60,910 nucleotides of DNA from Tannerellaceae bacterium (GTDB taxonomy: Bacteria; Bacteroidota; Bacteroidia; Bacteroidales; Tannerellaceae): NCBI GenBank assembly GCA_031271045.1, contig JAISWO010000069.1, forward strand, positions 1 to 60,910. The letters are read 5' to 3'. Shown here piece by piece: positions 8,304 to 45,640 of the stretch. Under the pieces are notes generated by a model. It saw nothing but the letters and a program-made list of their open reading frames with translations, was not told the DNA's origin and ran no database searches. Each line of letters opens with the position of its first letter. Position 1 is the stretch's first letter. Both the position numbers and the translations under genes were made by a program.

Positions 8304-8660
8304 CCTTGCACGGTACCGTGCAACCGTAAATCAGATCCGGTTCCTCCTTGCACGGTACCGTGCTACGGCAAACTAAACTATTTCCTCCTTGCACGGTACC
8401 GTGCAACCGCAAATCAGATCCGGTTTCCCCTTTCCCGGTACCGAGCTACGGCAAATTGAAAATAATTCCTCCTTGCACGGTACCGTGCTACGGCAAATCG
8501 GATCCGGTTTCCACTTTCCCGGTACCGAGCTACGGCAAATTGAAAATAATTCCTCGTAGCCCGGTACCGTGCTACGGCAAATCGGATCCGGTTTCCACTT
8601 TCCCGGTACCGGGCTACCACAAACCGAAACTGTTTCCGGGTAGCACGGCGCCGGGCTGCT
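8304..8660. repeat. Array 1: 42-bp units of GGTACC-centred palindromes, dyads every 21 bp
   Basis: Nine palindrome cores, eight GGTACC and one GGCGCC, are centred at 8314.5, 8356.5, 8397.5, 8439.5, 8481.5, 8523.5, 8565.5, 8607.5 and 8649.5. The spacing is 42 bp except for one step of 41. The best copies read TTGCACGGTACCGTGCAA, a perfect 18-bp palindrome. Exactly 21 bp after a core lies a second dyad: GGATCC or AGATCC in odd units, and AATT-N6-AATT in several even units. The array therefore has a dyad every 21 bp. The stretch from 8661 to 8987 holds no gene or box that I recognise. Confidence 0.92.
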
Positions 8661-8987
8661 ATCCGGAGCTTTCAGGGACGGTCGGGAGGGCGGCGGGAGG
8701 CTTGTTTTTCCTTTCGCTTGACGATAGCCCTGTTTGTGGCAATCGGTAGCGGAGACAAAAAGCGGGCAGCGCTGTCCCGGGACGGTCATACGATACCTTA
8801 TATAAAGGCTGCATCATGAAAAGAATTGTGAAACGAGAACAATATGAAACTTTCAAGTGTTATAGTTTCAAGAGCGCACAATGATTCGCAGATGAACAGA
8901 CAAAACGCCACTGTTCGCCCCGAATCTGTTGCAATTACAATCTGTCGCGGACTTAATCATATCATCAATCTGTAAAAGAACACCTTT

Positions 8988-9767
8988 ATGAAAACGATAA
9001 CAAATAGTTGTACCATCCTCTTGCTGCTGCTGCTTTGCCGGTGTGCGAACGACAGCGCGAGTTGCAGTTACAGGGAAGGGACGCTTCACGCCACAGACGG
9101 CCTTTGTTTCCCCAAAGTCGAAGACGCCTACACCTATCCCGTCGCGCCGGGGATGGAAGAATGGCAGACTTCCGGCGACGTATTCGAACTCGTTCAACTC
9201 CCCGGCCACGTCCTGAACACCATCTCCACGCTGGGGTTGATTGATGCGCTGGTGCAGTCGCCGCTGTTCGCGGGTTACTATCAGCCTTCCGGCTCCACTC
9301 CGATTGCCACGTGGCACAGGCATTACGGACGGTTCAACTGCGCCACGGAACTGTTCAGACGCGACGATGCAGGCAAGGCGCTGATAACCTACTACCGGTC
9401 CATCCGCATGAATTGCATCGAATCGTCGGCCGCAGAAGAAAATCCCGGACAACTTGGCGCCTATGAAAGAGTCTTCGGCCTCGAATTTTTATTCACCCGG
9501 CAAGAGATACTGAACAAAATCGGACACGTCGACAAGCAGGCGCTGGTCGATGCCCTTCTGGCAACGTACGAACGACAGCCGGAACGCTGGATGAAACTCA
9601 TCCCCATGTCCTTTATCATGATGAACGACCAATATCCACCCATGGAGAAATATTATCTGGAAAACATCGACCTGTACGAACGCTCGATCGCCTTCGGATA
9701 TATCGTCTCCATCAAACAGTCCGACCAGATCCTCTCCCTGGCAAACCGTTTCATCACCAAAAAGTAG
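8988..9767 (+). CDS. Exported protein of unknown function
   Basis: A 259-residue protein starting MKTITNSCTILLLLLLCRC, a basic-hydrophobic export signal with cysteines at 17 and 19. The signal may be a relaxed lipoprotein signal, but no canonical lipobox (small residue before Cys) is present. The mature part is rich in aromatic residues and has WHRHYGRFNCATELF and YERVFGLEFLF segments. I do not recognise the family. It is followed by the DUF2891 gene, which has its own promoter. Confidence 0.65.
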   Translation: MKTITNSCTILLLLLLCRCANDSASCSYREGTLHATDGLCFPKVEDAYTYPVAPGMEEWQTSGDVFELVQLPGHVLNTISTLGLIDALVQSPLFAGYYQPSGSTPIATWHRHYGRFNCATELFRRDDAGKALITYYRSIRMNCIESSAAEENPGQLGAYERVFGLEFLFTRQEILNKIGHVDKQALVDALLATYERQPERWMKLIPMSFIMMNDQYPPMEKYYLENIDLYERSIAFGYIVSIKQSDQILSLANRFITKK

Positions 9768-9828
9768 CAAGCCCGCCGGGCAGCCTCCGGAATACCGGCG
9801 CAGGATCGCATCTATGCCATTTTGTGTA

Positions 9829-9836
9829 TACATTTG
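9829..9836 (+). promoter_or_regulatory. -7 box of the DUF2891 gene
   Basis: TACATTTG, 19 bases before the ATG at 9856. It lies inside the longer frame that begins at 9814 and so supports the shorter start. Confidence 0.55.
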
Positions 9837-9855
9837 CAGAACAAAAAAGATCAAA

Positions 9856-10944
9856 ATGAAATTGAGTATGAAAATGAAATGGATAAGGGGATGCCTGCTG
9901 GCGGTTGCCGCACCCTTGTCTTTGGCGCAGATGCAGGCGCAAGAACTGGACAGACAGCAGGCGGAGAAAATCTTCCGGTTGCCGGTACACTGCATCACGA
10001 CTGAGTTCCCAAACAAAATGGGGCAGGTGCTGGGCAGTGAAGCCGACCTGAAACGGCCCGGAGCCTTACGGCCCATCTTTTACGGATGCTTCGACTGGCA
10101 TTCGTCGGTGCACGGCTACTGGTCGATCGTTAAACTGATGAAAGACTTCCCCGAACTGGACCGGGACGGCCGGGTCAGGGCCCTGTTAAACCAGACCATT
10201 ACGCCCCGGAACGTGGAGATCGAGAAATCCTTCTTCCAGGACATCAACAACCGGAGTTTCGAGCGTACCTACGGCTGGGCCTGGTTCCTGCAACTGCAAA
10301 ACGAACTGTATACCTGGCCGGACCGGGACGCCCGCCGGTGGTACGAGACCCTGAAGCCCCTGGCCGACCTGCTGGTAGAGAGATACACGGAATATTTGCC
10401 CAAGCTCCTCTACCCCATCCGCACCGGCCAGCACGACAACTCCGCCTTCGGCCTGTCACTGGCAATAGACTATGCCCGTACCGTCGGTCAAACGTCCTTT
10501 GAACAAACCATCGTCGAACATTCCCTGAGGCTCTACCTCGGCGACACAGGCTGCAACCTGGCCTACGAACCGGGCGGGAACGACTTCCTGTCCCCCTGCC
10601 TCGAAGAAGCCCTGCTGATGAGTAAGACGCTCGACACGGAAAGCTACCGCCAATGGCTGGCGCACTTCCTGCCCTCGCTCTTCGATCCGGCCTTCCACCT
10701 TGAGCCCGGACAGGTATCCGACCGCACAGACGGGCACCTGGTACACCTGGATGGCCTGAACTTCAGCCGCGCCACCTGCCTGTACGGCATCGGGCGCAAA
10801 CTGCCGGCCTTGTCCCACCTGCATACCGTCGCCGGCCGCCACCTGAACTATTCCATCTCCAACATCGTGAACGACGATTATATGGGAAGCCACTGGCTGG
10901 GCAGCTTTGCCCTCTATGCACTGATGAACAAACCCGCCGGGTAA
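9856..10944 (+). CDS. Exported DUF2891 protein
   Basis: A 362-residue protein beginning MKLSMKMKWIRGCLLAVAA with a Sec signal cleaved near LSLAQMQAQ. The segment PIFYGCFDWHSSVHGYWSIVKLMK and the alpha/alpha-barrel-like spacing of aromatic residues match DUF2891, a family of periplasmic proteins of unknown activity. The conserved FDWHSSVHG could hold catalytic or metal-binding His/Asp. The gene ends 22 bases before the convergent wbqC-like gene. Confidence 0.82.
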   Translation: MKLSMKMKWIRGCLLAVAAPLSLAQMQAQELDRQQAEKIFRLPVHCITTEFPNKMGQVLGSEADLKRPGALRPIFYGCFDWHSSVHGYWSIVKLMKDFPELDRDGRVRALLNQTITPRNVEIEKSFFQDINNRSFERTYGWAWFLQLQNELYTWPDRDARRWYETLKPLADLLVERYTEYLPKLLYPIRTGQHDNSAFGLSLAIDYARTVGQTSFEQTIVEHSLRLYLGDTGCNLAYEPGGNDFLSPCLEEALLMSKTLDTESYRQWLAHFLPSLFDPAFHLEPGQVSDRTDGHLVHLDGLNFSRATCLYGIGRKLPALSHLHTVAGRHLNYSISNIVNDDYMGSHWLGSFALYALMNKPAG

Positions 10945-10966
10945 GGCGCTACCGAACAACGTCTGC

Positions 10967-11593
10967 TTAAACCTCCGTCTGCGAGTCGCGGAGTATAAGG
11001 ACCCCTTCGGGGCCCATGTTGAAAAGGAGGTCGATGATGCTCAGGTTCGGGAGGAATCCGAAACGGTCGCTGAAAACTTGGTAGTAAGAACGGGGATGGA
11101 ACGACGGATCCTCTCCCGGATGCCGGGGGCGGATAGTTTCGCGGAAGTCGTTCGGCAGGTCGGGAGAATAACTCCGGGTATAATGGAGATTCGGCCTCAC
11201 GTCCAGCAATCCGCAAACCAGTTCGCGCAGTCCTTCGTTGAAGTCCAGCAGGAAGCGGTGCTCCTTCGTATAAAAAGGCAGGAAGTCGTCGGCATAATAC
11301 TCAAAGAAGGGAGTGGCGTTATAGGCCGAAAGGATGGCATTCCAATGCTGGTGTCGCCAGTTGCCGTGGGTGGAGATACGGATGTCGCGCGTAAGACATT
11401 TCAGTGAGGCGGGCTTCTCCACCGGTATCGAGAGGACGAGGCATCCGTTGGAGGCGGCAATGAGGCAACGGTTGCGGTAGGTTTGTTTCAGATAGCTTTC
11501 GGCCGTTTCGATATAGACATCGGCATAATGGAATAGTTTGCAGTAATATTGAACAGGCGCCAGATAGGCGGAGGAAAGATAGACAGGCGCCAT
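10967..11593 (-). CDS. WbqC-family protein
   Basis: A 208-residue cytosolic protein. The start VYLSSAYLAPVQYYCKLFHY and the segments TYRNRCLIAASNGCLVLSIPV and NWRHQHWNAILSAY are typical of the WbqC family. WbqC proteins occur in polysaccharide biosynthesis loci and in Bacteroidetes signal peptidase operons; their reaction is not established. The ATG shares one base with the stop of lepB2, so translation is coupled. It is the last gene of the dapB-lepB-lepB2-wbqC operon. Confidence 0.85.
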   Translation of the reverse strand: MAPVYLSSAYLAPVQYYCKLFHYADVYIETAESYLKQTYRNRCLIAASNGCLVLSIPVEKPASLKCLTRDIRISTHGNWRHQHWNAILSAYNATPFFEYYADDFLPFYTKEHRFLLDFNEGLRELVCGLLDVRPNLHYTRSYSPDLPNDFRETIRPRHPGEDPSFHPRSYYQVFSDRFGFLPNLSIIDLLFNMGPEGVLILRDSQTEV

Positions 11594-12471
11594 CAGTGGA
11601 TCGGTTTGAACCTGCGCTTATTGTCTTTGCTGTACCAGCAGAACCAGGCCTTCCCGATGATATGGCTGGCAGGGATAAACCCTAAATGACGGGAGTCGAT
11701 GGCCTCGTTGATATTGTCCGACAGCACCCAATAGTAATCCTGGCCAAAGCGAAAGCGGTTAGTTTCTTTCCCATCCAGAAAGAGTTTTCTGTTGCGGAAC
11801 TCTGCCGTGCCTCCGGTTTCCATCCGGATAGCTTCGCGGCAGGCGGTGATAAAGGTTTCATTCAGTCGGTAGACTTCGCCCTTGCGGGGGACGATAAACC
11901 GGTAATTGCCGGTCTCTTCGCGGACAAATTGCCGGTTCATCTGTTCGGACAATTCTTCCCGTATGCGATATTCCTCGAAGGATGTCAGGCTCAGCGTGAT
12001 GCTGATGCCGGCAGGGTCGTCTTTCATGTCCCTGAGGGGGATGTTCAGCCTTTGCAATACCTCCCCGAACGGCTGCTTTATGGCGGCGCTAAGCGTATAT
12101 GACGACAAACTGTTGGGCGAACGGGGATAGAAGGCGCCGTTGATGCTATATCCTGCATCACTTACCTGTATGGTGTCTCCCGGCAGGGCGACGCAACGGC
12201 TTACCAGCAGGGGCGCGTCGTCCCGGTCTTTCATAAGCGGACTGAGGAAGAGGATAATCTGATTATGCTTCAGATGTTGTGCCGTGAGTTTGTTCACCAG
12301 CACATAATCGCCCTTATGCAAGGTGTTTTCCATCGAAGCCGTAGAGATACGGTACGAGCCGATGCCAAACGCTCGTACACATAAGACGGCCAACAGGATG
12401 CCTGCACATAATGCTGCCGTCTTCACTTCTTTCTTCTTCAGGAATCCGGCCTTCATTGTCGGGACTTTCAT
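11593..12471 (-). CDS. Signal peptidase I paralogue lacking the catalytic lysine
   Basis: A 292-residue S26-family protein with one N-terminal membrane helix (about 17-34). The nucleophile box reads ISTASMENTL, with Ser46 in place. The box that should carry the general-base lysine (KR-x-x-x-x-PGD) reads LLVSRCVALPGDT, so position 91 is Ser. The C-terminal box LSDNINEAIDSRHLGFIP is intact in outline. It overlaps the stop of the upstream lepB by 4 bases. Without lysine it may be inactive, use another base, or work as a partner of LepB. The intact paralogue next door makes either outcome viable. Confidence 0.85.
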   Translation of the reverse strand: MKVPTMKAGFLKKKEVKTAALCAGILLAVLCVRAFGIGSYRISTASMENTLHKGDYVLVNKLTAQHLKHNQIILFLSPLMKDRDDAPLLVSRCVALPGDTIQVSDAGYSINGAFYPRSPNSLSSYTLSAAIKQPFGEVLQRLNIPLRDMKDDPAGISITLSLTSFEEYRIREELSEQMNRQFVREETGNYRFIVPRKGEVYRLNETFITACREAIRMETGGTAEFRNRKLFLDGKETNRFRFGQDYYWVLSDNINEAIDSRHLGFIPASHIIGKAWFCWYSKDNKRRFKPIH

Positions 12472-13838: not shown

Positions 13839-13872
13839 GCTTTTGCTTTATTTATAGTTTAAAGATAGTTTC

Positions 13873-14592: not shown

Positions 14593-14621
14593 ATTTATTA
14601 TTTTGATTTGATTCGAACGCA

Positions 14622-14629
14622 CAAATGTA
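14622..14629 (-). promoter_or_regulatory. -7 box of dapB operon
   Basis: TACATTTG on the minus strand, 29 bases before the dapB ATG. Confidence 0.6.
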
Positions 14630-14724
14630 GGCATTCCCCACTTATAAACGTTTCTGCGGTGGTCAATTTTCGCAACCTCAATCGTAAGTATGTTATCCTA
14701 AGGGCATAAAAAAAGGCCTCTTCG

Positions 14725-14795
14725 TTGTCTCATCAAGATTCGAACTTGAACAAACAGAACCAAAACCTGTTGTGCTACCATTACACCATGAGACA
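14725..14795 (-). tRNA. tRNA-Gln (TTG anticodon)
   Basis: On the minus strand the acceptor arms TGTCTCA and TGAGACA pair perfectly. The D-arm contains GGTGTAATGGTAGCAC. The anticodon arm is ACAG / loop with TTG / CTGT, and the T-loop is TTCAAGTTCGAATCTTGA. A discriminator A follows and CCA is not encoded. A strong promoter lies at 14822-14829. Confidence 0.95.
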
Positions 14796-14821
14796 GTGAG
14801 AGGGCTTTGTCAAAAGTGCTG

Positions 14822-14829
14822 CAAAGGTA
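14822..14829 (-). promoter_or_regulatory. Promoter of tRNA-Gln
   Basis: TACCTTTG on the minus strand, preceded by TTTG with exactly 19 bases between: a full -33/-7 pair. Confidence 0.7.
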
Positions 14830-14869
14830 AGAAGTTTCTCTTACTGTGCAAATATTTCAGAGGGAAATA

Positions 14870-15478: not shown

Positions 15479-15509
15479 ACGTTGCGGGACGGGGAGAAGG
15501 AGGGGGGCG

Positions 15510-16694
15510 TCAGTCGATCATGGTGGCGGGGTATTGTACGCCGGTGAGGTAGGCGAGTATTTCGCCGTCTTTGAGGACTTCCGTTGTCTGTATGTCGCCG
15601 AAACCGTAGTATGGTTTTTCGAAGAAGACGTTGGCGGCCGGTGGGTCGACTAAGAGGCCGATGGGGGTTGTCCCGTCGCTGTCGAAGAGGAAGTCGGCGA
15701 TGGGGAGGTCGACGAAGGTGTCTGTTTCGGGGTTCAGGATTTTCATGACGCCGTCTTTGGCGTCAGGGTACAGGATGTTGGCGAAGGCGGTGGGGTTGAC
15801 GGCCTGGAGTGACATGTGGACGCCGATGCCGGAGATGCTGCCGGTGCCGACGACGGCCTGGGCGGAGATGGCGAGCTGCGGGATGCCGTCGTCGCCGGGG
15901 GTTTCGCCGTCGGGGGTTTCGGGCTGGGTGTCGTCTTTTCCTGCGGGGCGGTATTTGGGGTTACGCCGGGCGTAGATGGCTTCGTATTTTTGGATGAAGG
16001 AGTTGATGAAGCGGATGGCGTCGCCGAGCGAGGCGCTCACTTCGGGGTCTTTGACGGGCAGGAGTTCGTTGGCGCGGAAGCAGGCGTTGATGTCGAAGAT
16101 GACGTCGGTGAGTTTGCTGTCGCTTTGTCGCCGGGCGCTGCTGAGTGTGCCTTCGCTCTTCTGATCGCCTTCGCTGACGGTGCGTTCGACGTAGAGTTCG
16201 ATGAAGGCGTCGTTATCGCGCTGGAGTCGTTCGATGCCGTCTTCGGCGCCGGTGATGAGGGCGACCAGAGGGGCATGTTTTTCCTTTTCCAGGTCTTGTA
16301 TGAGGTTCGTGACTAAGGCGGAGACTTCATTCATGGGGGCGTAGTAGGCGTTGGAATAGTTTTCGAAGACCTCCATCAGGGTGTCGGCGGCTTCTTTCAC
16401 TTGGGCGTCTTCGCTGTATACTCCCAGTTCGACGCATCGCCGGAGGGCGACGTAGGAGGTGCGCCGTTTTTCGTGGGTTACTTTGATATGGCGGGTCTCT
16501 TCCTGTTTGGCGCTTCGTTTGTAGAGTTCATCTTCTTTGTCGAAGGCCTGGAGGAAGGCGTTGACGGGGCCTGTGAGGGAGGCGGGCTTCAGCGGGGCGG
16601 TGCGGAAATGGCCGGAGATGGCGCTGTACAGGCTGAAGTGTTCTGCGTTGCGCAGCCGTCGGGGGAACGAGGGGTTGTAATTGATCGCTAACAT
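15510..16694 (-). CDS. DUF6261-family protein no. 2 with beta-rich C-terminal domain
   Basis: A 394-residue cytosolic protein, paralogue of the 7057-8205 product over its whole length. It has an all-helical part of about 255 residues (RRLRNAEHFSLYSAI; LYKRSAKQEETRHIKVTHEKRR; LVTNLIQDLEKE; DNDAFIELYVER), a linker rich in Asp/Pro/Gly, and the shared domain ISAQAVVGTG to VQYPATMID. The start MLAINYNP at 16694 is chosen because a TACCTTTG promoter box at 16748-16755 sits within the longer frame, and that longer frame would translate part of array 2. Function unknown. Array 2 lies 156 bp upstream. Confidence 0.7.
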   Translation of the reverse strand: MLAINYNPSFPRRLRNAEHFSLYSAISGHFRTAPLKPASLTGPVNAFLQAFDKEDELYKRSAKQEETRHIKVTHEKRRTSYVALRRCVELGVYSEDAQVKEAADTLMEVFENYSNAYYAPMNEVSALVTNLIQDLEKEKHAPLVALITGAEDGIERLQRDNDAFIELYVERTVSEGDQKSEGTLSSARRQSDSKLTDVIFDINACFRANELLPVKDPEVSASLGDAIRFINSFIQKYEAIYARRNPKYRPAGKDDTQPETPDGETPGDDGIPQLAISAQAVVGTGSISGIGVHMSLQAVNPTAFANILYPDAKDGVMKILNPETDTFVDLPIADFLFDSDGTTPIGLLVDPPAANVFFEKPYYGFGDIQTTEVLKDGEILAYLTGVQYPATMID

Positions 16695-16747: not shown

Positions 16748-16755
16748 CAAAGGTA
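16748..16755 (-). promoter_or_regulatory. -7 box of DUF6261 gene no. 2
   Basis: TACCTTTG on the minus strand with TTTG 21 bases upstream of it. Array 2 lies about 70 bp upstream of the -33 element. Confidence 0.55.
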
Positions 16756-16850: not shown

Positions 16851-17300
16851 GGTCGCGCGAAGTGGCGCGATGTCCATTAGCTTGCTATTCAGGTCGCGCG
16901 AAGTGGCGCGATGTCCATTAGCATGCTATTCTTGGTCGCGCGAAGTGGCGCGATGTCCATTAGCATGCTATTCTTGGTCGCGCGAAGTGGCGCGATGCCC
17001 ATTAGCATGCTATTCTTGGTCGCGCGAAGTGGCGCGATGCCCATTAGCATGCTATTTTAGGTCGCGCGAAGTGGCGCGATGTCCATTAGCATGCTATTCT
17101 CGGTCGCGCCATTTCGCGCGATGTCCATTAGCATGCTATTGCGGGTCGCGCCATTTCGCGCGATGTCCATTAGCATGCTATTCTCGGTCGCGCCATTTCG
17201 CGCGATGTCCATTAGCATGCTATTCCGGGTCGCGCCATTTCGCGCGATGTTCATTAGCATGCTATTTTGAATCGCGCCATTTCGCGCGACCTCTGAGGGG
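16851..17300. repeat. Array 2: eleven 42-bp units, two dyads per unit 21 bp apart
   Basis: Units start at 16851, 16892, 16934, 16976, 17018, 17060, 17102, 17144, 17186, 17228 and 17270 (first step 41, all others 42). Each begins with the dyad TCGCGC-N6-GCGCGA. Its second dyad is TAGCATGCTA, centred exactly 21 bp later. Units 1-6 have the N6 loop GAAGTG. Units 7-11 have CATTTC, close to its reverse complement, so the centre is inverted while the flanks keep their orientation. Because 42 is a multiple of three, frames stay open through the array on both strands, but I see no promoter or start for them. Confidence 0.95.
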
Positions 17301-27065: not shown

Positions 27066-29087
27066 TTAGTTGTTGGTCATGCGTTTGATGATGCTGTATG
27101 CGTTGATGATGCCTAATTCGCCGGCTTTGCTGAGGTCGGTGATGCCGCGGTTGGCGTCGCCCTGGGAGAGGTGGGTCAGGCCGCGGTTGAAGTAGGCTTC
27201 GGCGAAGTCGGGGTCGCGGAGGATGGCTTCGTTGTAATCCTGGATGGCGGCGCGGTAATCGCGTTGGGCGCAGAGGAGGTTGGCGCGGTTGAAGTAGGCG
27301 TAGATGAAGGCGGGGTTCAGGCGGATGACCCGGTCGTAGTCGTGGAGGATGAGTTCGTGAGGGGTCGGCGTGCCGGAGGGGAGCTTATCGGGGTCGGAGG
27401 CGGCAGTGGTTTGCTGCGAGAGGGAGTATTCCAACTGTTTGTAGCGGACAACGGCGCGGTTGAAGTAGGCCATGGCGAAGGAGGGGTTTATTTCGATGGC
27501 GCGGGTGTAATCTTTGAGGGCTTCGGAGAAGTCCTGTACGAGCATGTGGTCGATGGCGCGGGCGAAGTAGGCGTCGGCGTCGGCGGGATTTTGGGCGATC
27601 CGGGCCGAATATTCGTCGATGGAGGCGAAGTGGGTTTGGATTTGTTCTCCGGTCAGGGGCGCTTCTTCGTTGGTGAGGCGCAGCTGGTAGGAGAGGAGTC
27701 GTCGGGCGTTGTAGTCTTCGACGGAGCGGTCGTAGTAGACGAGTTTCTTGACGGGGTCGGGTTTTTCGTAGTAGGTGAGGATGAATTGGGGTTCGAGGTC
27801 TACGCGCACGTTGCGGTCTTGTACGCGTCCGCGGATGTCGCTTTGGTATTTGTTTTTGCGTTCTTCTTCTTTGTCGTAGACGACGAGGCGATTGAACTTA
27901 TGGATGTTCTTGTCGGACTGTTCGCGGGTGTTTTCGCCGTCGGCGGAGGCGTCGGTGGCGGAGGCTGAGGCGGTGTTTGCGGCGGAGGCTCGTTCGCGTC
28001 GGAGTCGTTCTTCGATTTCGAAGGCGGTCCAGGCGTCGCGGTCGGCGCCGGCGTTGTCGCGCAGTTTGCGTTTGGCTTCGGCCCGGCTGTAGTAGCCGGG
28101 GAAGAAGTCGGGGTATTGGTTGAGGACGGTGGTGAAGTCGTCGACGGCTCCGGAGTGGTTGCCTGTTTCCATGCGCAGGAGGGCTCGGTTGTAGTAGGCC
28201 ATGTAGTTGTCGGATTCTTCTTCGATGACGACGCTGAAGTCTTCGATGGCGCGGTTATTGTCGCCGACTTGTGCGCGGAGGAGTCCTCGGTTGAAGCGTG
28301 CGATGAGGTTCCGGCTGTCGAAGGCGAGGACCTGGTCGTAGTCGGCCATGGCTCCGCGGAGGTCGTTCATGCGGAAGCGTACGAGTCCACGGTTGATGAG
28401 GTATCCACTTTCGCGCGTATTGAGTCGGATGGCTTCGTTGAGGTCGGCGAGTGCGGCTTTGAAGTCGTTGCGTTGATAGAGGATGATGGCTCGGTTGCCG
28501 TAGGCGGGGGGTGAGTAGGGATCCATTTCGATGGCTTGGTTATAGTCGTTCAGGGCGAGGGTTGTGTCGCCTTTTTCGAGGTACATGGCTCCGCGTGCGA
28601 GGTAGTTGGGGGCATGTTTGGGGTAGGCGTCGAGGAGGGTATCGAATACGGTTACGGCGCCGTCGTAATCTTTGTTTTGTATGTGTGCAATGGCTTTATT
28701 GAGGAGCATTTGCCGGTCTTGGTGTTTAAATTCGAGTCCTTTGTTGTAGTCTTGGATGGCGTCGTTGAAGTTATCCTGGTTTTGTCGTGCGATGCCTCGT
28801 GCGAAGTAGGCTTGCGGGAGGAAGGGGTTTCGTTCCAGGGCGAGGGAGCAATCTTCTTCGGCGCCTTTGAAGTCGTCGAGGTTGATTTTGGCTACGGCCC
28901 GGTAGAAGTAGGGGTCTGCCAGCCAGGGTTTGGAGCGTATAACCTGGTTGAAGTATTGTATCGAGAGGACATAATCTTCGAAATAGAGTGCATTGCGTCC
29001 GATGGCCAGTACGCGGTCGGTATTGATCTGTGCCATTGCGTGGAAGGTGCAGATCAGTATCAGGAACGGGGTGATTGCTTTTTTCAT
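27066..29087 (-). CDS. Exported TPR-repeat protein
   Basis: A 673-residue protein with a Sec signal (MKKAITPFLILICTFHAMAQ). About ten TPR units fill residues 21-345, many with the pattern AYFNRGxxxxxxGDxxxAIxDYxxAI. A charged segment of about 150 residues follows, with a DKNIHKFNRLVVYDKEEERKN stretch, and then four more TPRs up to the C-terminus. It probably scaffolds a periplasmic or outer-membrane complex; no partner is evident. The strand is rich in GGCG codons but not foreign. Promoter box at 29110-29117. Confidence 0.85.
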   Translation of the reverse strand: MKKAITPFLILICTFHAMAQINTDRVLAIGRNALYFEDYVLSIQYFNQVIRSKPWLADPYFYRAVAKINLDDFKGAEEDCSLALERNPFLPQAYFARGIARQNQDNFNDAIQDYNKGLEFKHQDRQMLLNKAIAHIQNKDYDGAVTVFDTLLDAYPKHAPNYLARGAMYLEKGDTTLALNDYNQAIEMDPYSPPAYGNRAIILYQRNDFKAALADLNEAIRLNTRESGYLINRGLVRFRMNDLRGAMADYDQVLAFDSRNLIARFNRGLLRAQVGDNNRAIEDFSVVIEEESDNYMAYYNRALLRMETGNHSGAVDDFTTVLNQYPDFFPGYYSRAEAKRKLRDNAGADRDAWTAFEIEERLRRERASAANTASASATDASADGENTREQSDKNIHKFNRLVVYDKEEERKNKYQSDIRGRVQDRNVRVDLEPQFILTYYEKPDPVKKLVYYDRSVEDYNARRLLSYQLRLTNEEAPLTGEQIQTHFASIDEYSARIAQNPADADAYFARAIDHMLVQDFSEALKDYTRAIEINPSFAMAYFNRAVVRYKQLEYSLSQQTTAASDPDKLPSGTPTPHELILHDYDRVIRLNPAFIYAYFNRANLLCAQRDYRAAIQDYNEAILRDPDFAEAYFNRGLTHLSQGDANRGITDLSKAGELGIINAYSIIKRMTNN

Positions 29088-29472: not shown

Positions 29473-29627
29473 GTTCCTGTTGTGGTCTTTTTTCTTTCTT
29501 CTTCGTCTTTTTTCTTTCCTGCCCGGCACATTTTTCTTCCTGCTCCGCAATTCTTTCTTGTCAATCCGCACATCTTTCTTCCTGCTCCGCAATTCTTTCT
29601 TCCTGCTTCATTTTTTTTCATTTTTTC
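29473..29627 (+). repeat. Degenerate pyrimidine-rich 21-bp repeats
   Basis: About six imperfect copies. The clearest are CTTCCTGCTCCGCAATTCTTT (twice) and CTTGTCAATCCGCACATCTTT in strict 21-bp steps between roughly 29540 and 29625. T-rich, poorer copies precede them. The tract sits between small RNA 2 and the third promoter. No gene is visible here. Confidence 0.6.
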
Positions 29628-29658: not shown

Positions 29659-29751
29659 TCCCATAAGTTTACGTTCCTTATGGTTCAGTGATTGTTTTGC
29701 TGCAAAGGTCGTAGATAAATCGCTCTTTATAAGTCTGTAATCCGAGGTGCA

Positions 29752-30570
29752 GGAACTCTGACGGAAGTCGCCGGAACCTTAACGGAAGCTACCGGAACTC
29801 TAACGGAAGCCGCCGGAACCTTAACGGGAGCCGCCGGAACTCTAACGGAAGGCGCCGGAACCTTAACGGAAGCTGCCGGAACTCTAACGGAAGCTGCCGG
29901 AACTCTAACGGAAGGCGCCGGAACTCTAACGGAAGGTAACGGAACTCTAATGGAAGGTGCCGGAACTCTAACGGAAGGTAACGGAACTCTAATGGAAGGC
30001 GCCGGAACCCTAATGGAGGCTGCCGGAACTCTAACGGAAGGAGACGTAACCCTAACGAAAGGTAACGGAACTTTAATGGAAGTTGTTGGAACTATAACGG
30101 AGATTGCCGGAACTCTAATGGAGACTGCCGGAACTCTAATGGAAGGCACCGGAACTCTAACGGAAGGTGCTGGAACTCTAATGGAAGGTGCTGGAACTCT
30201 AATGGAAGGTAACGGAATCCTAATAGAAGGTAACGAAACACTAATGGAAGTTACCGGAACTCTAATAGAAGTTGCCGAAACATTAATGGAAGGTAACGGA
30301 ACCCTAACGGAAGGCGATGGAACCCTAATGGAAGGTAACGGAATCCTAACGAAAGGCGACAGGACCCTAATGGAAGCCGCCGGAACTCTAACGGAAGATA
30401 ACGGAATCCTAACGAAAGGCGACGGAACTCTAATGGAAGGTAACAGAACCCTATTGGAAGCTACCGGAACTCTAATGGAAGGTGACGGAACCCTAATGGA
30501 AGCTACCGGAACTCTAATGGAAGCCGAAGGAACCCCATCGGAAGGCGAAGGAACCCTATCGGAAGTACCA
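29752..30570 (+). repeat. Array 4: 39 direct repeats of 21 bp in perfect register
   Basis: Units start at 29752 and every 21 bp to 30550 with no insertion or deletion. Consensus is GGAACTCTAA(T/C)GGAAGgtnnC. There is no internal dyad. The plus frame reads as heptapeptides GTL(M/T)EGx and continues to a stop at 30613-30615 (AKSDEPKKMLKEK). The first in-frame ATG is only at 29950, in the tenth unit; the first nine have ACG instead. So it is either a coding repeat of 221 residues (29950-30615) or a long repetitive leader of the 30663 gene. The minus strand is open too, which is a by-product of the period. Confidence 0.92.
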
Positions 30571-30662: not shown

Positions 30663-31355
30663 ATGGCAAGCGAAAAAGGCGACTGGATCAGTCGCAGCAG
30701 AGATAAACTGATGATGCAACTCGAACAGTCGAAAAAACATATCGACGACAACCTGGTGCAATTCGATATGCAGCCCACCACCGTCAACGGACGATGGTAC
30801 AAGAACTTCTGCGAAGGGCCCCTGGCCCATTACAGCAGCGCCTACGAAGACTGGAAGAACCCGGCGACCCGCACCAGGATCAGCATAGATCGCATGATAG
30901 AGGCCGAGAGGGAAGTTGTGCCCGCCTACCGCAAACTGTGCGCCATGATGAAGGCCAACGACGCCGTCTCGGACGCCGACCTCGAAGCCGCCGCCTTCCG
31001 CAAACGCCCCTCGGTCCGCCGCTCGCCCTCCCCGGTAGCCACCCTCCCGCCGGGCTTTGAAGTCATCCCCATGGCCGGCCACCAACTGCGCATCGACTAT
31101 TTCCCCCTGGGCGAAATGCGCAAAAGCCGCCGCCCCGCCGGCCAACACGGCGCCGAAATTAAGTGGGGATTCTCCGACACCATCGTCGAAGATCCCGACC
31201 TTCTCGACCGCTCCTTCTTCTCGACCTCCTCGCCGGCCATCCTCGCCTTCCGAGGCAGCGAGATGGGCCGGAAAGTCTACATCTCACTCCGTTGGGAAAA
31301 CACCCGCGCCCTCAAAGGCCCCTGGAACGTCCCCGTCGAAGCCGTCATTCCCTGA
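30663..31355 (+). CDS. Array-4-linked protein of unknown function, helical plus FN3-like domain
   Basis: A 230-residue cytosolic protein with no signal peptide. Residues 1-105 look all-helical (DWISRSRDKLMMQLEQ; RISIDRMIEAEREVVPAYRKL). A Pro/Ser-rich linker leads to a beta-rich domain (about 135-230) ending KVYISLRWENTRALKGPWN, the pattern of a fibronectin-III-like fold. The plan (helical bundle, linker, beta domain) mirrors DUF6261 proteins 1 and 2, though I see no sequence identity. I recall proteins of similar outline in other Bacteroidetes, without a function. It lies 47 bases after the array 4 frame and has no promoter of its own. Confidence 0.75.
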   Translation: MASEKGDWISRSRDKLMMQLEQSKKHIDDNLVQFDMQPTTVNGRWYKNFCEGPLAHYSSAYEDWKNPATRTRISIDRMIEAEREVVPAYRKLCAMMKANDAVSDADLEAAAFRKRPSVRRSPSPVATLPPGFEVIPMAGHQLRIDYFPLGEMRKSRRPAGQHGAEIKWGFSDTIVEDPDLLDRSFFSTSSPAILAFRGSEMGRKVYISLRWENTRALKGPWNVPVEAVIP

Positions 31356-38582: not shown

Positions 38583-38590
38583 TACATTTG
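38583..38590 (+). promoter_or_regulatory. -7 box of dnaG
   Basis: TACATTTG, 24 bases before the dnaG ATG. Confidence 0.6.
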
Positions 38591-38614
38591 CAGGCCTTCA
38601 AGAAAACAAACCAA

Positions 38615-40621: not shown

Positions 40622-40636
40622 TAAAACAGATAACGT

Positions 40637-41563: not shown

Positions 41564-42867
41564 ATAAGATAGGAATCATCATCAAAAGAGAATACATACG
41601 GCGGGTGAGCAAAAAGTCCTTCCTTCTGCTGACGCTCCTCATGCCTTTCCTGATCGTAGCCATAGGTTTTGTCCCCTTCTGGCTGGCGCAGATACGGAGC
41701 GACGACGTGCGCAACGTGGTCGTCATCGACACAACGGGGAAATACCTTTCCCTCTTCCAGGATACGGACAGCTACCGCTTCGTCGGCAGCGAAAAGTCGC
41801 TGGAAGATTACCGCAACAGTCGCGACAAAGAAGCCTACGCCATCCTGAGCATCACCGGCGACCTGCTCGACAATCCCGGCGCCGCCGCCCTCTATTCCGA
41901 AAAACAAATACCGGGCGACCTGAGCCGGATCGTGAACCAGGCCATCTCCCGGCAACTGGAAAGCGACAAACTGGCCACCTTCAACATTCCCAACCTGAAG
42001 GAAATCATCGACGAGAGCAAAATCCGGTTCAGCATCCAGACCCTCAAATGGGGCGACGACGGCGAGGAAAGCGCCTCCTCCGCGTCGGTAGCCTCCATCG
42101 TCGGAATGGCTTCGACGCTCCTGATCTATATGTTCATCATCATGTACGGAAGCATGGTGATGCAGGGTGTGCTGGAGGAAAAGACCAACCGTATCGTCGA
42201 GCTGATGGTATCTTCCGTCCGCCCCTTCGACCTGATGATGGGGAAAATCATCGCCCTGGGCTTCGTCGGCCTCACGCAGTTGTTCCTCTGGGGTGTGATG
42301 ACGACCGGACTCTTCTTTGCCGGCATGATGTTTATGGGAGGAAGTATCGACCCCCAGGCCCTTCAGGCAGGCATGGCCATGCAGCCGTCCGCCATGCCGG
42401 CGCAGATGGAGGGCATACAGGAGATCTACCAGGTCATCGGTACGATCAACTTCGCGGAGCTTCTTTTCTTCTTTGCCATTTACTTCGTCGGAGGCTACCT
42501 GCTGTATGCGTCCGTCTTTGCCGCCATCGGATCGAGCGTCAACCAGCAGGAGGACACACAGCAGTTCATGACCCCGATCATGATCTTTATCATCTTCGCC
42601 CTCTATGCCGGCATCGGCAGTATCGAGAATCCCGACGGCCCGCTGGCCTTCTGGTGCTCGCTCATACCGTTCACGTCGCCGATCGTGATGATGGTGCGCC
42701 TGCCGTTCGAGGTTCCGCTGTGGGAGAAACTGCTCTCCATTGCGCTGCTCTACGTCTCGGCCTTCGGCATCGTCTGGCTGTCGGCCAAGATCTACCGCGT
42801 AGGCATCCTGATGTACGGAAAGAAACCGTCCCTGAAGGAGATTGTCAAGTGGGTGAAATATAAGTAA
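41560..42867 (+). CDS. ABC-2 type transporter permease (NatB-like)
   Basis: A 435-residue permease. One N-terminal helix (about 21-43) precedes a large extracytoplasmic domain (about 45-185). Five or six helices follow, with the NatB-like motif VMQGVLEEKTNRIVELMVSSVRPFDLMMGKI on the cytoplasmic side. It works with the preceding ATPase. miaA begins 6 bases after its stop. Confidence 0.9.
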   Translation: MNKIGIIIKREYIRRVSKKSFLLLTLLMPFLIVAIGFVPFWLAQIRSDDVRNVVVIDTTGKYLSLFQDTDSYRFVGSEKSLEDYRNSRDKEAYAILSITGDLLDNPGAAALYSEKQIPGDLSRIVNQAISRQLESDKLATFNIPNLKEIIDESKIRFSIQTLKWGDDGEESASSASVASIVGMASTLLIYMFIIMYGSMVMQGVLEEKTNRIVELMVSSVRPFDLMMGKIIALGFVGLTQLFLWGVMTTGLFFAGMMFMGGSIDPQALQAGMAMQPSAMPAQMEGIQEIYQVIGTINFAELLFFFAIYFVGGYLLYASVFAAIGSSVNQQEDTQQFMTPIMIFIIFALYAGIGSIENPDGPLAFWCSLIPFTSPIVMMVRLPFEVPLWEKLLSIALLYVSAFGIVWLSAKIYRVGILMYGKKPSLKEIVKWVKYK

Positions 42868-42873
42868 AGCGTC

Positions 42874-43800
42874 TTGGAAGCTTATCAGCTTATCACCGTC
42901 CTGGGGCCGACGGCGTCGGGGAAAACCTCCTTCGCCGCCGCCCTGGCTCAGCGGTTGGACACTGAAATCATCAGCGCCGACTCGCGGCAGGTATACCGTT
43001 CGATGGACATAGGAACGGGCAAGGACATCGCCGACTATACGGTGAACGGGAAAGCCGTCCCCTACCACCTGATCGACATACGCGAGCCGGGATATAAATA
43101 TAATGTCTACGAATACCAGCACGACTTCGCCCGCGCATACCAGGCCGTGCGCGACAGGGGGAAACGGCCCGTCCTCTGCGGAGGGACAGGCATGTACATC
43201 GAAGCCGTACTGAAAGGATACCGCCTGCTCGACGTCCCTCCCAACCCGGAGCTCCGACGCTCGCTCGCCGGCAAACCCCTCGCCGAACTCGAAGCCTTAC
43301 TCGCCGCTTACAGGGCGCTCCACAACAAGACCGACGTCGACACCGCCCAACGCGCCATCCGCGCCATCGAGATCGAAGACTACTACCGCCACCAGGCGCC
43401 CCCGGCGAACGAATTCGCCCCCATCCACAGCCTCAACATCGGCATCCGCATCGACCGCGAAGCACGCCGCCAAAAGATCAGCCAACGCCTCCGCACCCGC
43501 ATCGAGGAAGGCTTGGTCGACGAAGTACAACAACTCCTCCGCTCCGGCATACCGCCGGAAGACCTCCTCTACTACGGATTGGAATACAAATACGTCACCC
43601 TCTACCTCACCGGCCGGCTCGCCCGCGAAGAAATGGTCGCCCAGCTGGAGATCGCCATCCACCAATTTGCCAAACGCCAGATGACCTGGTTCCGCGGAAT
43701 GGAACGCCGCGGGTGCACCATCCACTGGATAGATGCTTCGCTCCCCACTGCCGGAAAAATAAGTCTCGTCGAAGCCCTGCTCCGGCAGAACCAGCCTTGA
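42874..43800 (+). CDS. miaA: tRNA dimethylallyltransferase (TTG start)
   Basis: A 308-residue enzyme that prenylates A37 of tRNAs reading UNN codons. The phosphate loop is VLGPTASGKTSFAAAL. ISADSRQVYRSMDIGTGK (catalytic Asp), YHLIDIREPGYKYNVYEY and VLCGGTGMYIEAVLKGY follow. No ATG lies upstream within the frame; the start is TTG at 42874, 6 bases after the permease stop, giving the expected N-terminus. Probably co-transcribed with dnaG and the ABC exporter. Confidence 0.93.
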   Translation: MEAYQLITVLGPTASGKTSFAAALAQRLDTEIISADSRQVYRSMDIGTGKDIADYTVNGKAVPYHLIDIREPGYKYNVYEYQHDFARAYQAVRDRGKRPVLCGGTGMYIEAVLKGYRLLDVPPNPELRRSLAGKPLAELEALLAAYRALHNKTDVDTAQRAIRAIEIEDYYRHQAPPANEFAPIHSLNIGIRIDREARRQKISQRLRTRIEEGLVDEVQQLLRSGIPPEDLLYYGLEYKYVTLYLTGRLAREEMVAQLEIAIHQFAKRQMTWFRGMERRGCTIHWIDASLPTAGKISLVEALLRQNQP

Positions 43801-43868
43801 AGGCCTCCGGGTTAAGATTTATTAAGTAACCGGCCCGGCCTTTCATTTACAAAGCTGACGAATAATCT

Positions 43869-43876
43869 ATACATTT
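43869..43876 (+). promoter_or_regulatory. -7 box of the winged-helix gene
   Basis: TACATTTG, 28 bases before the ATG at 43905. Confidence 0.6.
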
Positions 43877-43904
43877 GCAGGCAGTAATCAAAAAAACCAG
43901 GAAT

Positions 43905-44105
43905 ATGATTGAACAAATCGGAACAAACGCCGGCCTCGTATGGAACATACTCAATGAAGGCGGCAGATTGAATCTCAAAGAAGTGAAGAAGGCGACCAAG
44001 ATCAAGACCGAAAAGGATCTGTACGCCGCCCTCGGCTGGCTGGCCAAAGAAGGCAAGCTCGCCTTCGAGGAATCAGAAGGAGACATATACATCTCGCTCC
44101 TCTGA
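43905..44105 (+). CDS. Small winged-helix protein (DUF2582-like)
   Basis: A 66-residue protein that fits a single winged helix-turn-helix: NAGLVWNILNEGGRLNLKEVKKATKIKTEKDLYAALGWLAKEGKL, then a beta wing (AFEESEGDIYISL). This matches the DUF2582 family common in Bacteroidetes and archaea. It may bind DNA, but no target is known. The ATG at 43905 agrees with the promoter, which sits inside the longer frame. A terminator follows. Confidence 0.8.
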   Translation: MIEQIGTNAGLVWNILNEGGRLNLKEVKKATKIKTEKDLYAALGWLAKEGKLAFEESEGDIYISLL

Positions 44106-44125
44106 TTCGCTGACCCTCAAATCAA

Positions 44126-44165
44126 AACTTCCGGCCAAACCCAGTTTGTCCGGAAGTTTTTTTAT
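44126..44165 (+). terminator. Intrinsic terminator after the winged-helix gene
   Basis: AACTTCCGG and CCGGAAGTT form a 9-bp stem followed by seven or more T. Confidence 0.85.
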
Positions 44166-44313
44166 CTACACCGGGCAATTGGCGGGCACTCTTGATTGTG
44201 ATAATGAGGACAAGATCCGTACCTCAAAAAAGGATACGAGCTCATACATACATTTTTTAACAGGAACTTTGATTTTTTTTCCGAAAAACTCTTGTTCGTA
44301 CAAAATCCTTTTG

Positions 44314-44321
44314 TATATTTG
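44314..44321 (+). promoter_or_regulatory. -7 box of DUF6261 gene no. 3
   Basis: TATATTTG, 49 bases before the ATG, with TTG about 20 bases upstream of it. Confidence 0.6.
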
Positions 44322-44370
44322 CCGCGATCCATATAATATTTAATGTACAAATCAAAAAAAAATCAATGTC

Positions 44371-45192
44371 ATGAAAGTTATCCGAATCCCCATCAGGAAT
44401 CTTCACAACGAGGAACTGTTTAATCTCCTTGTAGAACTTAGAGACCTTATCGAACGTTTCGATGCCGGCAAAATCGGAATTGAAAAACTGTTCTTACAAC
44501 TTCTTGTACTGCTCGACAAGGCCGACAAGCTGCTGATCGTACTCCGCAAAAGCGTCTACACCAAAGACATCGAAGCCGCCGACAAAAAGCGCGACAAGCT
44601 CGTTCGCGGTCTCATCAACCTGGTGAAAGCCATGCAAAACCAGCCCAGCGCCGCCATGCAAAAAGCCGCCGAACGACTCTTCAACCTCCTCAGGGAATAC
44701 CGCGAACCGATCCTGCGAGGCACCTATGTCGAAGAATCTGCCGCCCTCTACAACCTGCTCGAAGACCTCCGCACCAAATATACAGCCGACGTCACCGCCC
44801 TGCAACTGACCACCTGGGTGACCGCCATCGACCAGGCCGAACAGGAATTCCTCACCCTCTGGGCCGGACGCAAAGACGAAAGCGTAGCCAAACCCAAGGA
44901 AGAGCTGACCCAAGTCTACGCACAGATCGAAATCCTCTACAACGCCATCATCACCCAGCTCGACATCACCCTCCTGGCCGACGGTCTGGGAGGAGACTTC
45001 GCCGCCGACCCGGAAAGCCTCGACACCGACGACCATGATGACAACAAACCTTTTGCCCCCGAAACTCACGGAAATATCGTCTACAACTTTGTTCTTGACC
45101 TGAACGAAACAATCAAGAAATACCGTAACCTCTTGCAATACCGCGCCGGGCGACGCAGCAAGAACCCGGACAACGAAACAGAAGAATTTTGA
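44371..45192 (+). CDS. DUF6261-family protein no. 3 (helical part only)
   Basis: A 273-residue cytosolic protein, predicted helical almost throughout. It shares the family pattern D(I/A)xxAADxxRDxLVRGLI, ALYNLLEDLRTKY and AxxEFLTLWAxR with DUF6261 proteins. It lacks the beta-rich C-terminal domain of the other two paralogues: after an acidic stretch (DPESLDTDDHDDN) it ends with another helix (NFVLDLNETIKKYRNLLQY). It has its own promoter and terminator. Array 3 begins about 110 bp after its stop. Function unknown. Confidence 0.72.
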   Translation: MKVIRIPIRNLHNEELFNLLVELRDLIERFDAGKIGIEKLFLQLLVLLDKADKLLIVLRKSVYTKDIEAADKKRDKLVRGLINLVKAMQNQPSAAMQKAAERLFNLLREYREPILRGTYVEESAALYNLLEDLRTKYTADVTALQLTTWVTAIDQAEQEFLTLWAGRKDESVAKPKEELTQVYAQIEILYNAIITQLDITLLADGLGGDFAADPESLDTDDHDDNKPFAPETHGNIVYNFVLDLNETIKKYRNLLQYRAGRRSKNPDNETEEF

Positions 45193-45221
45193 TCCGCCAT
45201 CAGAAAGGAGAACTAATTACC

Positions 45222-45262
45222 GACAGCCACCCATCGAAAGAGAAGGTGGCTGTCCTTTTTTC
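45222..45262 (+). terminator. Intrinsic terminator of DUF6261 gene no. 3
   Basis: GACAGCCACC and GGTGGCTGTC pair over 10 bp, followed by C and six or seven T. It separates the gene from array 3, so the array is not in the main mRNA. Confidence 0.9.
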
Positions 45263-45300
45263 ATCCCCCCAACCCCTACCCTCCCCAAAAGGAAAAAACC

Positions 45301-45640
45301 TGCCGGCAAGCCAGGCACAACAGTGCTTAATCCCCCGACAAGCGTCGGCAAGCCGGGCACAACAGTGCTTACCCCCCCGACAACCGTAGGGAACCCGGCA
45401 GCATTGTGCCCGGACCCCCGACAACTGTCAGCCGACTAAGCAGCATTGTGCCAGGATCCCCGACAATCGTCGGCCGACCAAGCAGCATTGTGCCTGACCC
45501 CCCGACAATCGTCAGCCGACTAAGCAGCATTGTGCCTGACTCCCCGACAACCGTCGGCCGACCAAGCACAACGCTGTCGGCTTCCCCACGGTTGTCGGGG
45601 GGCTAAGCACTGCTGTGCCAGGCTTCCCGACACCCCGTCT
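45301..45640. repeat. Array 3: eight to nine 42-bp units, dyads every 21 bp
   Basis: Two dyads alternate. Type A is CCGAC-N4-GTCGG, centred at 45341.5, 45383.5, 45424.5, 45466.5, 45508.5, 45550.5 and about 45591.5. Type B is GCAGCATTGTGC or GCACAACAGTGC, centred at 45320.5, 45362.5, 45403.5, 45445.5, 45487.5, 45529.5, 45571.5 and 45612.5. Adjacent centres are 21 bp apart, with two steps of 20. The A loop is AAnC in most units but GGTT in the last clear one (inverted). Type B also appears in both orientations. No gene is visible from 45263 to 45765. Confidence 0.93.

What the first reader, a model, noticed from the sequence alone, without database searches (positions are those of the whole stretch)
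8304..45640. Four unrelated tandem arrays with one 21-bp geometry, each beside a DUF6261 or look-alike gene
All three DUF6261 paralogues (7057-8205, 15510-16694, 44371-45192) and the 230-aa protein at 30663 are neighbours of a tandem array: 8304-8660, 16851-17300, 45301-45640, 29752-30570. The arrays share no sequence, yet arrays 1-3 have 42-bp units with two dyads 21 bp apart, and array 4 has a 21-bp unit. I found no comparable array elsewhere in the window. A common spacing with different sequences suggests that each array co-evolves with its own protein: the helical protein may bind its dyads as a lattice on one DNA face, or process an RNA made from it. The array lies 5' of the gene in three cases and 3' in one, so a plain operator role does not fit all.
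Basis: partly seen in the sequence, partly recalled or inferred. Interest (0 to 1): 0.93.

Follow-up and report, generated by a model that had tools for sequence, protein, structure and literature searches.

The report
Gene families with private DNA lattices
In one Tannerellaceae bacterium nearly every one of 40 related genes sits beside its own tandem repeat array with a unit of about 42 base pairs, and the protein of each gene likely coats its own array, which would be an undescribed way for bacteria to mark places on their chromosome.

Summary
The genome has 40 DUF6261 hits; 37 have a 41-43-bp tandem array beside the gene, against 17 of 179 other open frames with one within 500 bp. The 230-aa protein at 30663 is an unrelated family; 16 of 16 copies have a 21-bp array. 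Both pairings recur in other Bacteroidota. Units differ between loci but keep length and, on average, dyad symmetry (97 arrays: 0.56 reverse-complement identity, 0.46 shuffled). Of 12 gene-less 41/42-bp arrays sampled, 9 match a home array. Stretches of three genomes without DUF6261 (518 kb) had none. In the 5' class the promoter box lies between array and gene (28 of 32), and G.T mismatches do not clearly outnumber A.C, so the symmetry looks like DNA, not RNA. Best explanation (inferred): each protein binds its own array as a cooperative DNA lattice, likely controlling its promoter and linking home to matching arrays. Against: no recognised DNA-binding fold, a helical part without net charge, weak overall array-protein correlation. 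Nearest known logic: RAYT/REP, but no transposase signature is conserved. One paper in the library names DUF6261; by its title it is unrelated.

The parts
7057..8205 (-). DUF6261 gene 1 (382 aa): helical part 1-243, beta domain 263-380
   Evidence: Pfam PF19775 E 3e-33; AlphaFold2 mean pLDDT 91.9
8244..8251 (-). -7 promoter box TACATTTG of gene 1, between gene and array (match to a consensus)
   Evidence: pattern TAnnTTTG; consensus as quoted in PMC7366714
8304..8660 (.). array 1, 42-bp units, dyads 21 bp apart, 5' of gene 1; gene-less relatives at G000 C31:27274-27556, C70:129227-129536 and C17:12597-12717
   Evidence: TRF to 8617, the rest by eye; dyads; relatives
15510..16694 (-). DUF6261 gene 2 (394 aa)
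   Evidence: Pfam PF19775 E 4.5e-23
16748..16755 (-). -7 promoter box TACCTTTG of gene 2, between gene and array (match to a consensus)
16851..17290 (.). array 2, 42-bp units, dyads 21 bp apart, 5' of gene 2; gene-less relatives at C25:30037-30435 and C68:34690-35085
   Evidence: TRF to 17266, the rest by eye; dyads; relatives
44314..44321 (+). -7 promoter box TATATTTG of gene 3 (match to a consensus)
44371..45192 (+). DUF6261 gene 3 (273 aa), subfamily with the 3' array
   Evidence: Pfam PF19775 E 1.3e-31; class by alignment and array side
45223..45261 (+). likely intrinsic terminator (9-bp stem, T run) between gene 3 and its array
   Evidence: read from the sequence; no terminator program was run
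45301..45640 (.). array 3, 42/84-bp units, 3' of gene 3; gene-less relatives at C49:14731-15063 and C23:17903-18276, short match C8:37852-37929
   Evidence: TRF to 45568, the rest by eye; relatives
29745..30565 (.). array 4, 21-bp units, 39 copies, 5' of the 230-aa gene; gene-less relative L077:3170-3352
   Evidence: TRF; relative (67%, E 1e-21)
30663..31355 (+). gene of the second, unrelated family (230 aa): helical 13-109 and an FN3-like beta domain 130-228; 16 matches in this genome, each with a 21-bp array 5'
   Evidence: AlphaFold2 mean pLDDT 94.2; Foldseek FN3 matches

Best explanation
Nearly every DUF6261 gene of this genome sits beside its own tandem array of 41-43-bp units, often palindromic, and its protein is predicted to bind that array cooperatively as a DNA-coating lattice, likely to control its own promoter and to link the array to matching gene-less arrays elsewhere in the chromosome. 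The geometry suggests how (inferred): a dyad-symmetric array of period P has two kinds of dyad P/2 apart, which is the symmetry of monomers laid head-to-head and tail-to-tail along DNA, here one monomer per 21 bp, two helical turns, so that all monomers face one side. The unrelated 230-aa family would follow the same plan with one monomer per 10.5 bp; its helical part (about 100 residues) is about half as long as that of DUF6261 (about 240). Specificity would lie in the helical part, because the C-terminal beta domain is swapped between paralogues with different arrays. Shown: the pairing, the unit length, dyad symmetry on average, a promoter box between most 5' arrays and their genes, gene-less arrays that match home arrays, and no such arrays in stretches of three genomes without the gene. 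Inferred: binding, cooperativity, stoichiometry, transcript limits, and the effect on promoter and chromosome.
For: Pairing: 37 of 40 DUF6261 hits against 17 of 179 other open frames; 16 of 16 of the 230-aa family against 9 of 181 for 21-bp arrays. Elsewhere: 20 of 27 named loci (3 of the 7 misses lack 5' sequence), 18 of 28 loci across the order (6 of the 10 misses have an autocorrelation z above 5 at 40-43 bp), 9 of 12 plus 3 of 3 in the one-contig genome G196, 15 of 28 in relatives (2 misses lack 5' sequence), and Parabacteroides distasonis L253. Unit length 42, 41, 43 in 22, 11, 3 of 36 arrays. Mean reflection symmetry 0.558 and 0.565 against 0.458 and 0.467 shuffled, 36 own and 61 external arrays; dyad pair at P/2 favoured (Wilcoxon p 0.023). 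DNA rather than RNA: promoter box between array and gene 28 of 32, shuffles 2.0; G.T 136 and A.C 130, 150 and 119 in 61 external arrays (p 0.067). Specificity: 9 of 12 gene-less 41/42-bp arrays match a home array; 0 such arrays in 518,124 bases of three genomes without DUF6261 against 11 in 320,000. Beta domain not linked to array: L020/L037 share it at 86% with helical parts 29% identical and no array match. No match in phage records or viral contigs.
Confidence: 0.5

Rival explanations
1. The arrays are selfish or semi-selfish repeats that the cognate protein helps to make, spread or maintain, as RAYT transposases are thought to do for REPs; binding serves copying, not a chromosome function.
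For: Gene-less copies match a home array; none in stretches of three genomes without the gene; arrays turn over faster than proteins; DUF6261 copy number ranges from 2 to 44 in 18 genomes of the genus; gene-less arrays lie in varied contexts, also between convergent genes and between two genes that I read as hisI and hisF; array 2 holds a block of units with an inverted loop.
Against: No transposase, nuclease or recombinase family matches; no conserved His-x-His in 39 paralogues; in this genome the array lies on one side of the gene; strict 41-43-bp length is not needed for copying; no match in phages or viral contigs.
Confidence: 0.22
2. DUF6261 proteins are ordinary transcription regulators and the arrays are homotypic operator clusters at their own promoter and at a few target genes.
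For: The array ends a median 119 bp 5' of the start codon (31 arrays), upstream of the promoter box in 28 of 32; 12 of 36 outer flanks of 18 gene-less arrays have an outward promoter box within 200 bp, 1.7 expected from shuffles (no control of ordinary intergenic regions was run).
Against: Five of 36 arrays lie 3' of the gene, three beyond what I read as a terminator; some gene-less arrays lie between convergent genes; no known DNA-binding domain; arrays of 200-500 bp are large for an operator.
Confidence: 0.15
3. The arrays act as RNA: they are transcribed and the neighbouring protein binds or processes the repeat RNA, as in type III toxin-antitoxin pairs.
For: For the 230-aa family the promoter box, where found, lies upstream of the array (7 of 16) and only once between array and gene; in external DUF6261 arrays G.T slightly exceeds A.C (150 to 119, p 0.067).
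Against: For DUF6261 the promoter box lies between array and gene (28 of 32); G.T mismatches are not clearly in excess over A.C; no match to PADLOC models.
Confidence: 0.08
4. A general host factor reads the arrays and the neighbouring genes are passengers; pairing reflects where such arrays can persist.
For: Arrays without the gene exist; palindromic arrays of 22/23 bp without any recurrent neighbour gene also exist.
Against: 37 of 40 against 17 of 179; no 41-43-bp arrays in 518 kb of genomes without DUF6261; home arrays differ in sequence, which one general reader would not need.
Confidence: 0.05

Closest known systems
REP / RAYT (REP-associated tyrosine transposase) systems and BIMEs: PMC2817692 (abstract and one results section read), PMC3116915 (abstract read)
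   Same: A gene sits beside palindromic repeats of its own kind; related repeats lie elsewhere in the genome; repeats depend on presence of the gene; gene and repeats co-evolve and change fast.
   Different: RAYTs are IS200/IS605-like transposases flanked by two inverted REPs; here the protein is helical without conserved transposase residues, the array is a tandem lattice with a 41-43-bp (or 21-bp) unit, mostly on one side, and dozens of gene-array pairs share one genome.
Type III toxin-antitoxin (ToxIN, CptIN); listings and abstract starts seen
   Same: A protein gene beside a tandem array specific to it.
   Different: There the array is an RNA antitoxin; here the DUF6261 promoter box lies between array and gene, dyads show no clear G.U preference, and no PADLOC model matches.
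Iteron and centromere arrays of plasmids (recalled; no paper read)
   Same: Tandem protein-binding sites about two helical turns apart beside the gene of the binding protein.
   Different: Chromosomal, dozens of different pairs per genome, no replication initiator or partition family found.
Helical sensor domains (McpS, TorS, PilJ)

Membership tests
DUF6261 (PF19775) | Pfam profile above its curated cut-off | tested here: met
   three window genes 82-115 bits, cut-off 27; 40 of 40 hits in the genome over cut-off
DUF6261 (PF19775) | same for the 230-aa protein | tested here: not met
   no Pfam family for the window protein, 0 of 44 members match DUF6261 at E 0.01; hhalign probability 0.3%
RAYT / REP | catalytic tyrosine transposase with His-hydrophobic-His motif (motif recalled) | tested here: not met
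   Pfam gives DUF6261 as the only family over its cut-off; among 39 paralogues the only column with 70% or more His is 19, so no conserved His pair
[quoted passage not shown]
   array on one side only in the window and in the own-genome table; one relative, L058, has arrays on both sides
RAYT / REP | related repeats dispersed in the genome and dependent on the gene | tested here: met
   but no match of gene-less to home arrays in G196 (0 of 7)
Type III toxin-antitoxin | array transcribed ahead of the gene from a promoter upstream of the array | tested here: not met
   for DUF6261: promoter box between array and gene in 28 of 32; for the 230-aa family inconclusive; no transcripts were seen
Type III toxin-antitoxin | endoribonuclease toxin of the ToxN fold | tested here: inconclusive
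   not among PADLOC matches nor the structure matches shown, which does not exclude it
CRISPR array | identical repeats separated by unique spacers | tested here: not met
   head-to-tail units without unique spacers
Iteron replicon or partition site | gene for a replication initiator or partition protein | tested here: not met
   no such family in Pfam, NCBIfam or PHROGs for the window proteins
Cooperative DNA-lattice binding | protein binds its array, one subunit per half-period | not testable with these tools
   needs binding assays; only geometry and co-occurrence were tested

The most novel reading that the evidence does not exclude
Bacteroidota carry a previously undescribed class of chromosomal addressing systems: dozens of private protein-lattice pairs per genome, built at least twice from unrelated proteins on the same plan, in which each protein polymerises on its own array with one monomer per 21 bp (or 10.5 bp) and gathers its home and matching arrays into its own nucleoprotein body, while array and protein specificity drift together fast, like a bacterial counterpart of satellite DNA and its reader.
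Probability: 0.35. Interest if true: 0.94.

Novelty: categorically new. Interest (0 to 1): 0.86.

Why it matters
It would give a function and a DNA partner to DUF6261, a family named in one paper of a 5.39-million-paper library, by its title an unrelated one, and to a second unnamed family. A genome with about 40 protein-array pairs of one design, with different array sequences, is a natural experiment in how protein-DNA specificity could evolve while geometry stays fixed. If the proteins polymerise on chosen sites they would also be programmable DNA-lattice tools. The pairing occurs in Parabacteroides sp. An277 and P. distasonis, so it can be tested in commensals.

Tried and rejected
Chance: rejected by 37 of 40 against 17 of 179. 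Contig-end artefact: arrays also occur in the one-contig genome G196. Coding 21-bp arrays: not supported; 33 of 34 arrays have an open sense frame but 34 of 34 an open antisense frame, stops are 65 against 66.6 expected after column shuffling, and synonymous excess is similar on both strands (of 37 arrays given, L134, L145 and L153 were dropped for poor units or fewer than five). L128 and L129 show sense z above 6; L128 also 5.5 antisense. RNA hairpins: see rivals. Homology between the two families, or between the two halves of the DUF6261 helical part: none by hhalign. Phage or plasmid origin: no phage record, no viral contig, two P. distasonis plasmid records at 27-30% identity. A third protein family beside 22/23-bp arrays: none recurrent in 30 arrays. 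Structure search of the viral library for DUF6261: nothing at E 0.001; the beta domain was not modelled alone. A homologue search with gene 1 returned 3 proteins, only the 7996 best candidates having been scored.

Weak or contrary results kept: Mantel tests, net charge, single-array symmetry, G196 gene-less arrays, array-less members such as L048, L051 and L184, arrays on both sides in L058. The 61 external arrays are the best 39-44-bp array in each locus, and some, such as that of L238, are not next to the gene. L040 (a partial near-duplicate of L033 at a contig end) was dropped from the 36-array tests; L053, L067 and L192 were dropped as repeats of other loci. The Fisher test counts 37 of 40, one of which (L034) lies at 905 bp, beyond the 500 bp used for other open frames. 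The control stretches were chosen by me away from DUF6261 hits, not at random. Gene-to-array tallies for other genomes are those of the script; reading by eye I had noted 19, not 20, of the 27 named loci.

Papers: searches returned nothing that describes this pairing in what I saw (listings; three papers opened in part); only open-licence PubMed Central papers were searched, with narrow terms.
Full report
What was given. Three DUF6261 genes and a 230-aa gene in the window each lie beside a tandem array, arrays 1-3 with 42-bp units and two dyads 21 bp apart, array 4 with a 21-bp unit. TRF and Pfam confirm this. The dyad centres are exactly 21.0 bp apart in the consensus of arrays 1 and 2; array 3 has drifted.

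The genome. The window is contig 27 of an unnamed 2.79-Mb genome. Two congeneric genomes hold DUF6261 proteins identical to those of named Tannerellaceae MAGs. The genome has 40 DUF6261 hits, all over the Pfam cut-off. TRF on their flanks finds a tandem array of 41-43-bp period at 37 of 40. The three others are L021, whose contig ends about 800 bp 5' of the gene, L025 and L026; the last has an autocorrelation peak at 43 bp, 0.40 against 0.27-0.34 at neighbouring lags. Thirty-two arrays lie 5' and five 3'; the five 3' ones are the five members of one subfamily with the N-terminal motif NEEW/NEEL. As control, 16 stretches of 20 kb chosen away from the DUF6261 hits were read: 17 of 179 other open frames of at least 150 aa have such an array within 500 bp (Fisher 3e-25).

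A second family. The 230-aa protein matches no Pfam family and is unrelated to DUF6261. It has 16 matches in the genome (17 with the alignment A2), and all 16 loci have a 21-bp tandem array 5' of the gene (L089 is fitted at 22 bp in part). Among other open frames of the control stretches 9 of 181 have a 21-bp array nearby (Fisher 1.6e-17). Of the 29 loci fetched as best matches in relatives, two (L140, L149) are the own genome's; of the other 27, I count 22 with a 21-bp array of at least 3.5 copies. Distant relatives in a genome of another class (G480, best E 2e-10) have one at 8 of 12 loci, and the single locus of G492 has none.

Breadth. DUF6261 copy number runs from 2 to 44 in 18 genomes of the genus. 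In a draw of 295 genomes of the order, own genome included, 33 have it. Arrays of 39-44 bp lie beside the gene at 20 of 27 named loci (3 misses have too little 5' sequence), 18 of 28 order-wide loci, 15 of 28 loci of relatives (2 too short) and 9 of 12 loci of G196, plus 3 of 3 further genes met in G196 control stretches. Six of the ten order-wide misses have an autocorrelation z above 5 at 40-43 bp. Parabacteroides sp. An277 (L127) and P. distasonis (L253) have arrays of 41 and 42 bp. On a tree of 133 proteins, array-less members fall in small groups: 15 changes, against at least 16 in 500 shuffles, which fits repeated loss. L058 of a relative has arrays on both sides of its gene.

Geometry. 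Unit length is 42, 41 or 43 bp in 22, 11 and 3 of 36 own arrays. Mean reverse-complement identity of the unit is 0.558 in 36 own and 0.565 in 61 external arrays, 0.458 and 0.467 after shuffling; singly, 17 of 36 and 25 of 61 reach p 0.05. The two best dyads of a consensus lie within 1 bp of half a period in 11 of 37, but the two-dyad score at half a period exceeds that at other separations (Wilcoxon p 0.023). Columns that take part in dyads are better conserved between copies (0.896 against 0.845). The 21-bp arrays also exceed shuffles in dyad score (6.06 against 5.31, sd 0.19). An array of period P with dyad symmetry has two kinds of dyad P/2 apart, the symmetry of head-to-head and tail-to-tail monomers; hence the inference of one DUF6261 monomer per 21 bp and one 230-aa monomer per 10.5 bp.

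DNA, not RNA. The Bacteroidota -7 box TAnnTTTG (consensus quoted in PMC7366714, one passage read) lies between 5' array and start codon in 28 of 32, 25 of them 35-67 bp before the start, against 2.0 in shuffles. So these arrays likely lie outside the gene's own transcript. Three of the five 3' arrays lie beyond what I read as a terminator, window gene 3 included; the other two begin 18 and 24 bp after the gene. Among dyad mismatches in sense orientation G.T and A.C are about equal: 136 and 130, 150 and 119 in external arrays (p 0.067), 165 and 148 in 21-bp arrays (p 0.37). RNA pairing would favour G.U. For the 230-aa family the box lies between array and gene in 1 of 16 and upstream of the array in 7 of 16, so those arrays may be transcribed; this is open. 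They show no general sign of coding.

Gene-less arrays. From the control stretches I took 12 arrays of 41/42 bp without a DUF6261 gene. Eight match a DUF6261 home array by blastn (E 2e-10 to 2e-67), some more than one; reversed sequences gave two hits, best 2e-9. A ninth matches a 21-bp home array. The rest are L073:16121, L075:5638 and L074:19912, the last cut by the end of the stretch. Two gene-less 21-bp arrays match home arrays, one of them window array 4. Window arrays 1, 2 and 3 have gene-less relatives at three, two and two places, plus one short match for array 3 (no DUF6261 hit lies there). Stretches of three genomes without DUF6261 have no array of 38-46 or 80-88 bp in 518,124 bases, against 11 in 320,000 bases of the own control and 9 (3 of them home arrays) in 160,000 of G196. 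Against this, none of 7 gene-less G196 arrays matched the 13 home arrays held there.

Co-change. Mean array score is about 21-24 for the six pairs with at least 70% identity in the helical part, 9.3-9.5 at 50-70% and 8.1-8.5, the background, below 50%. Single matches occur at lower identity: the five strongest array pairs of this genome join proteins 43-58% identical (mean of all pairs 31%). The rank correlation over all pairs is weak (rho 0.035 over 97 arrays, 0.09 over 36), as expected if arrays saturate early, but also if the link is loose. L005 and L014, about 80% identical, have arrays without a blastn match at E 0.01.

Reading. The best account is a private protein-DNA lattice: each protein binds its own array, beside its own promoter, and reaches related arrays elsewhere. 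Binding is inferred. The main rival is a RAYT-like maker of repeats, whose logic of repeats that depend on a neighbouring gene is the same (PMC2817692, abstract and one section), but the protein has no transposase signature and the array is mostly on one side. I call it categorically new because no system known to me, and none that eight narrow paper searches returned, pairs dozens of paralogous non-transposase proteins of one genome with private tandem arrays of fixed length.

Noticed in passing
window 16851-17290: Array 2: the first dyad has the loop GAAGTG in 6 units and nearly its reverse complement CATTTC in 5 later units, while the rest of the unit keeps its orientation.
   Followed up: partly
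L003, L020, L021, L023, L037, C-terminal domains: The C-terminal beta domain of DUF6261 is swapped between paralogues, up to 97% identical where the helical parts are 56% identical.
   Followed up: yes
L076:1365, L080:1440, L082:670, L083:19366; also G001, G007, G020 stretches: Further tandem arrays of 22/23-bp units, many palindromic; 30 examined, no recurrent neighbour gene family, perhaps gene-less arrays of a third family.
   Followed up: partly
L077:3170-3352: A 21-bp array related to window array 4 lies between two genes that I read as hisI and hisF, on the same strand.
   Followed up: partly
L254 (P. distasonis) and L228:4691-5086: In P. distasonis a DUF6261 gene lies near der; in the window's genome a gene-less relative of array 2 follows the gene that I read as der.
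   Followed up: partly
window 29511-29607: A short 21-bp, pyrimidine-rich array (4.6 copies) between array 4 and the TPR gene at 27066-29087.
   Followed up: no
window 57164-57583: An 81-bp tandem repeat (5.2 copies, 94% match) inside the open frame 56906-58633 on the minus strand.
   Followed up: no
L113 and L121: Proteins about 73% identical overall in two MAGs have array units that share one half (one dyad) and differ in the other, as if the two dyads changed separately.
   Followed up: no
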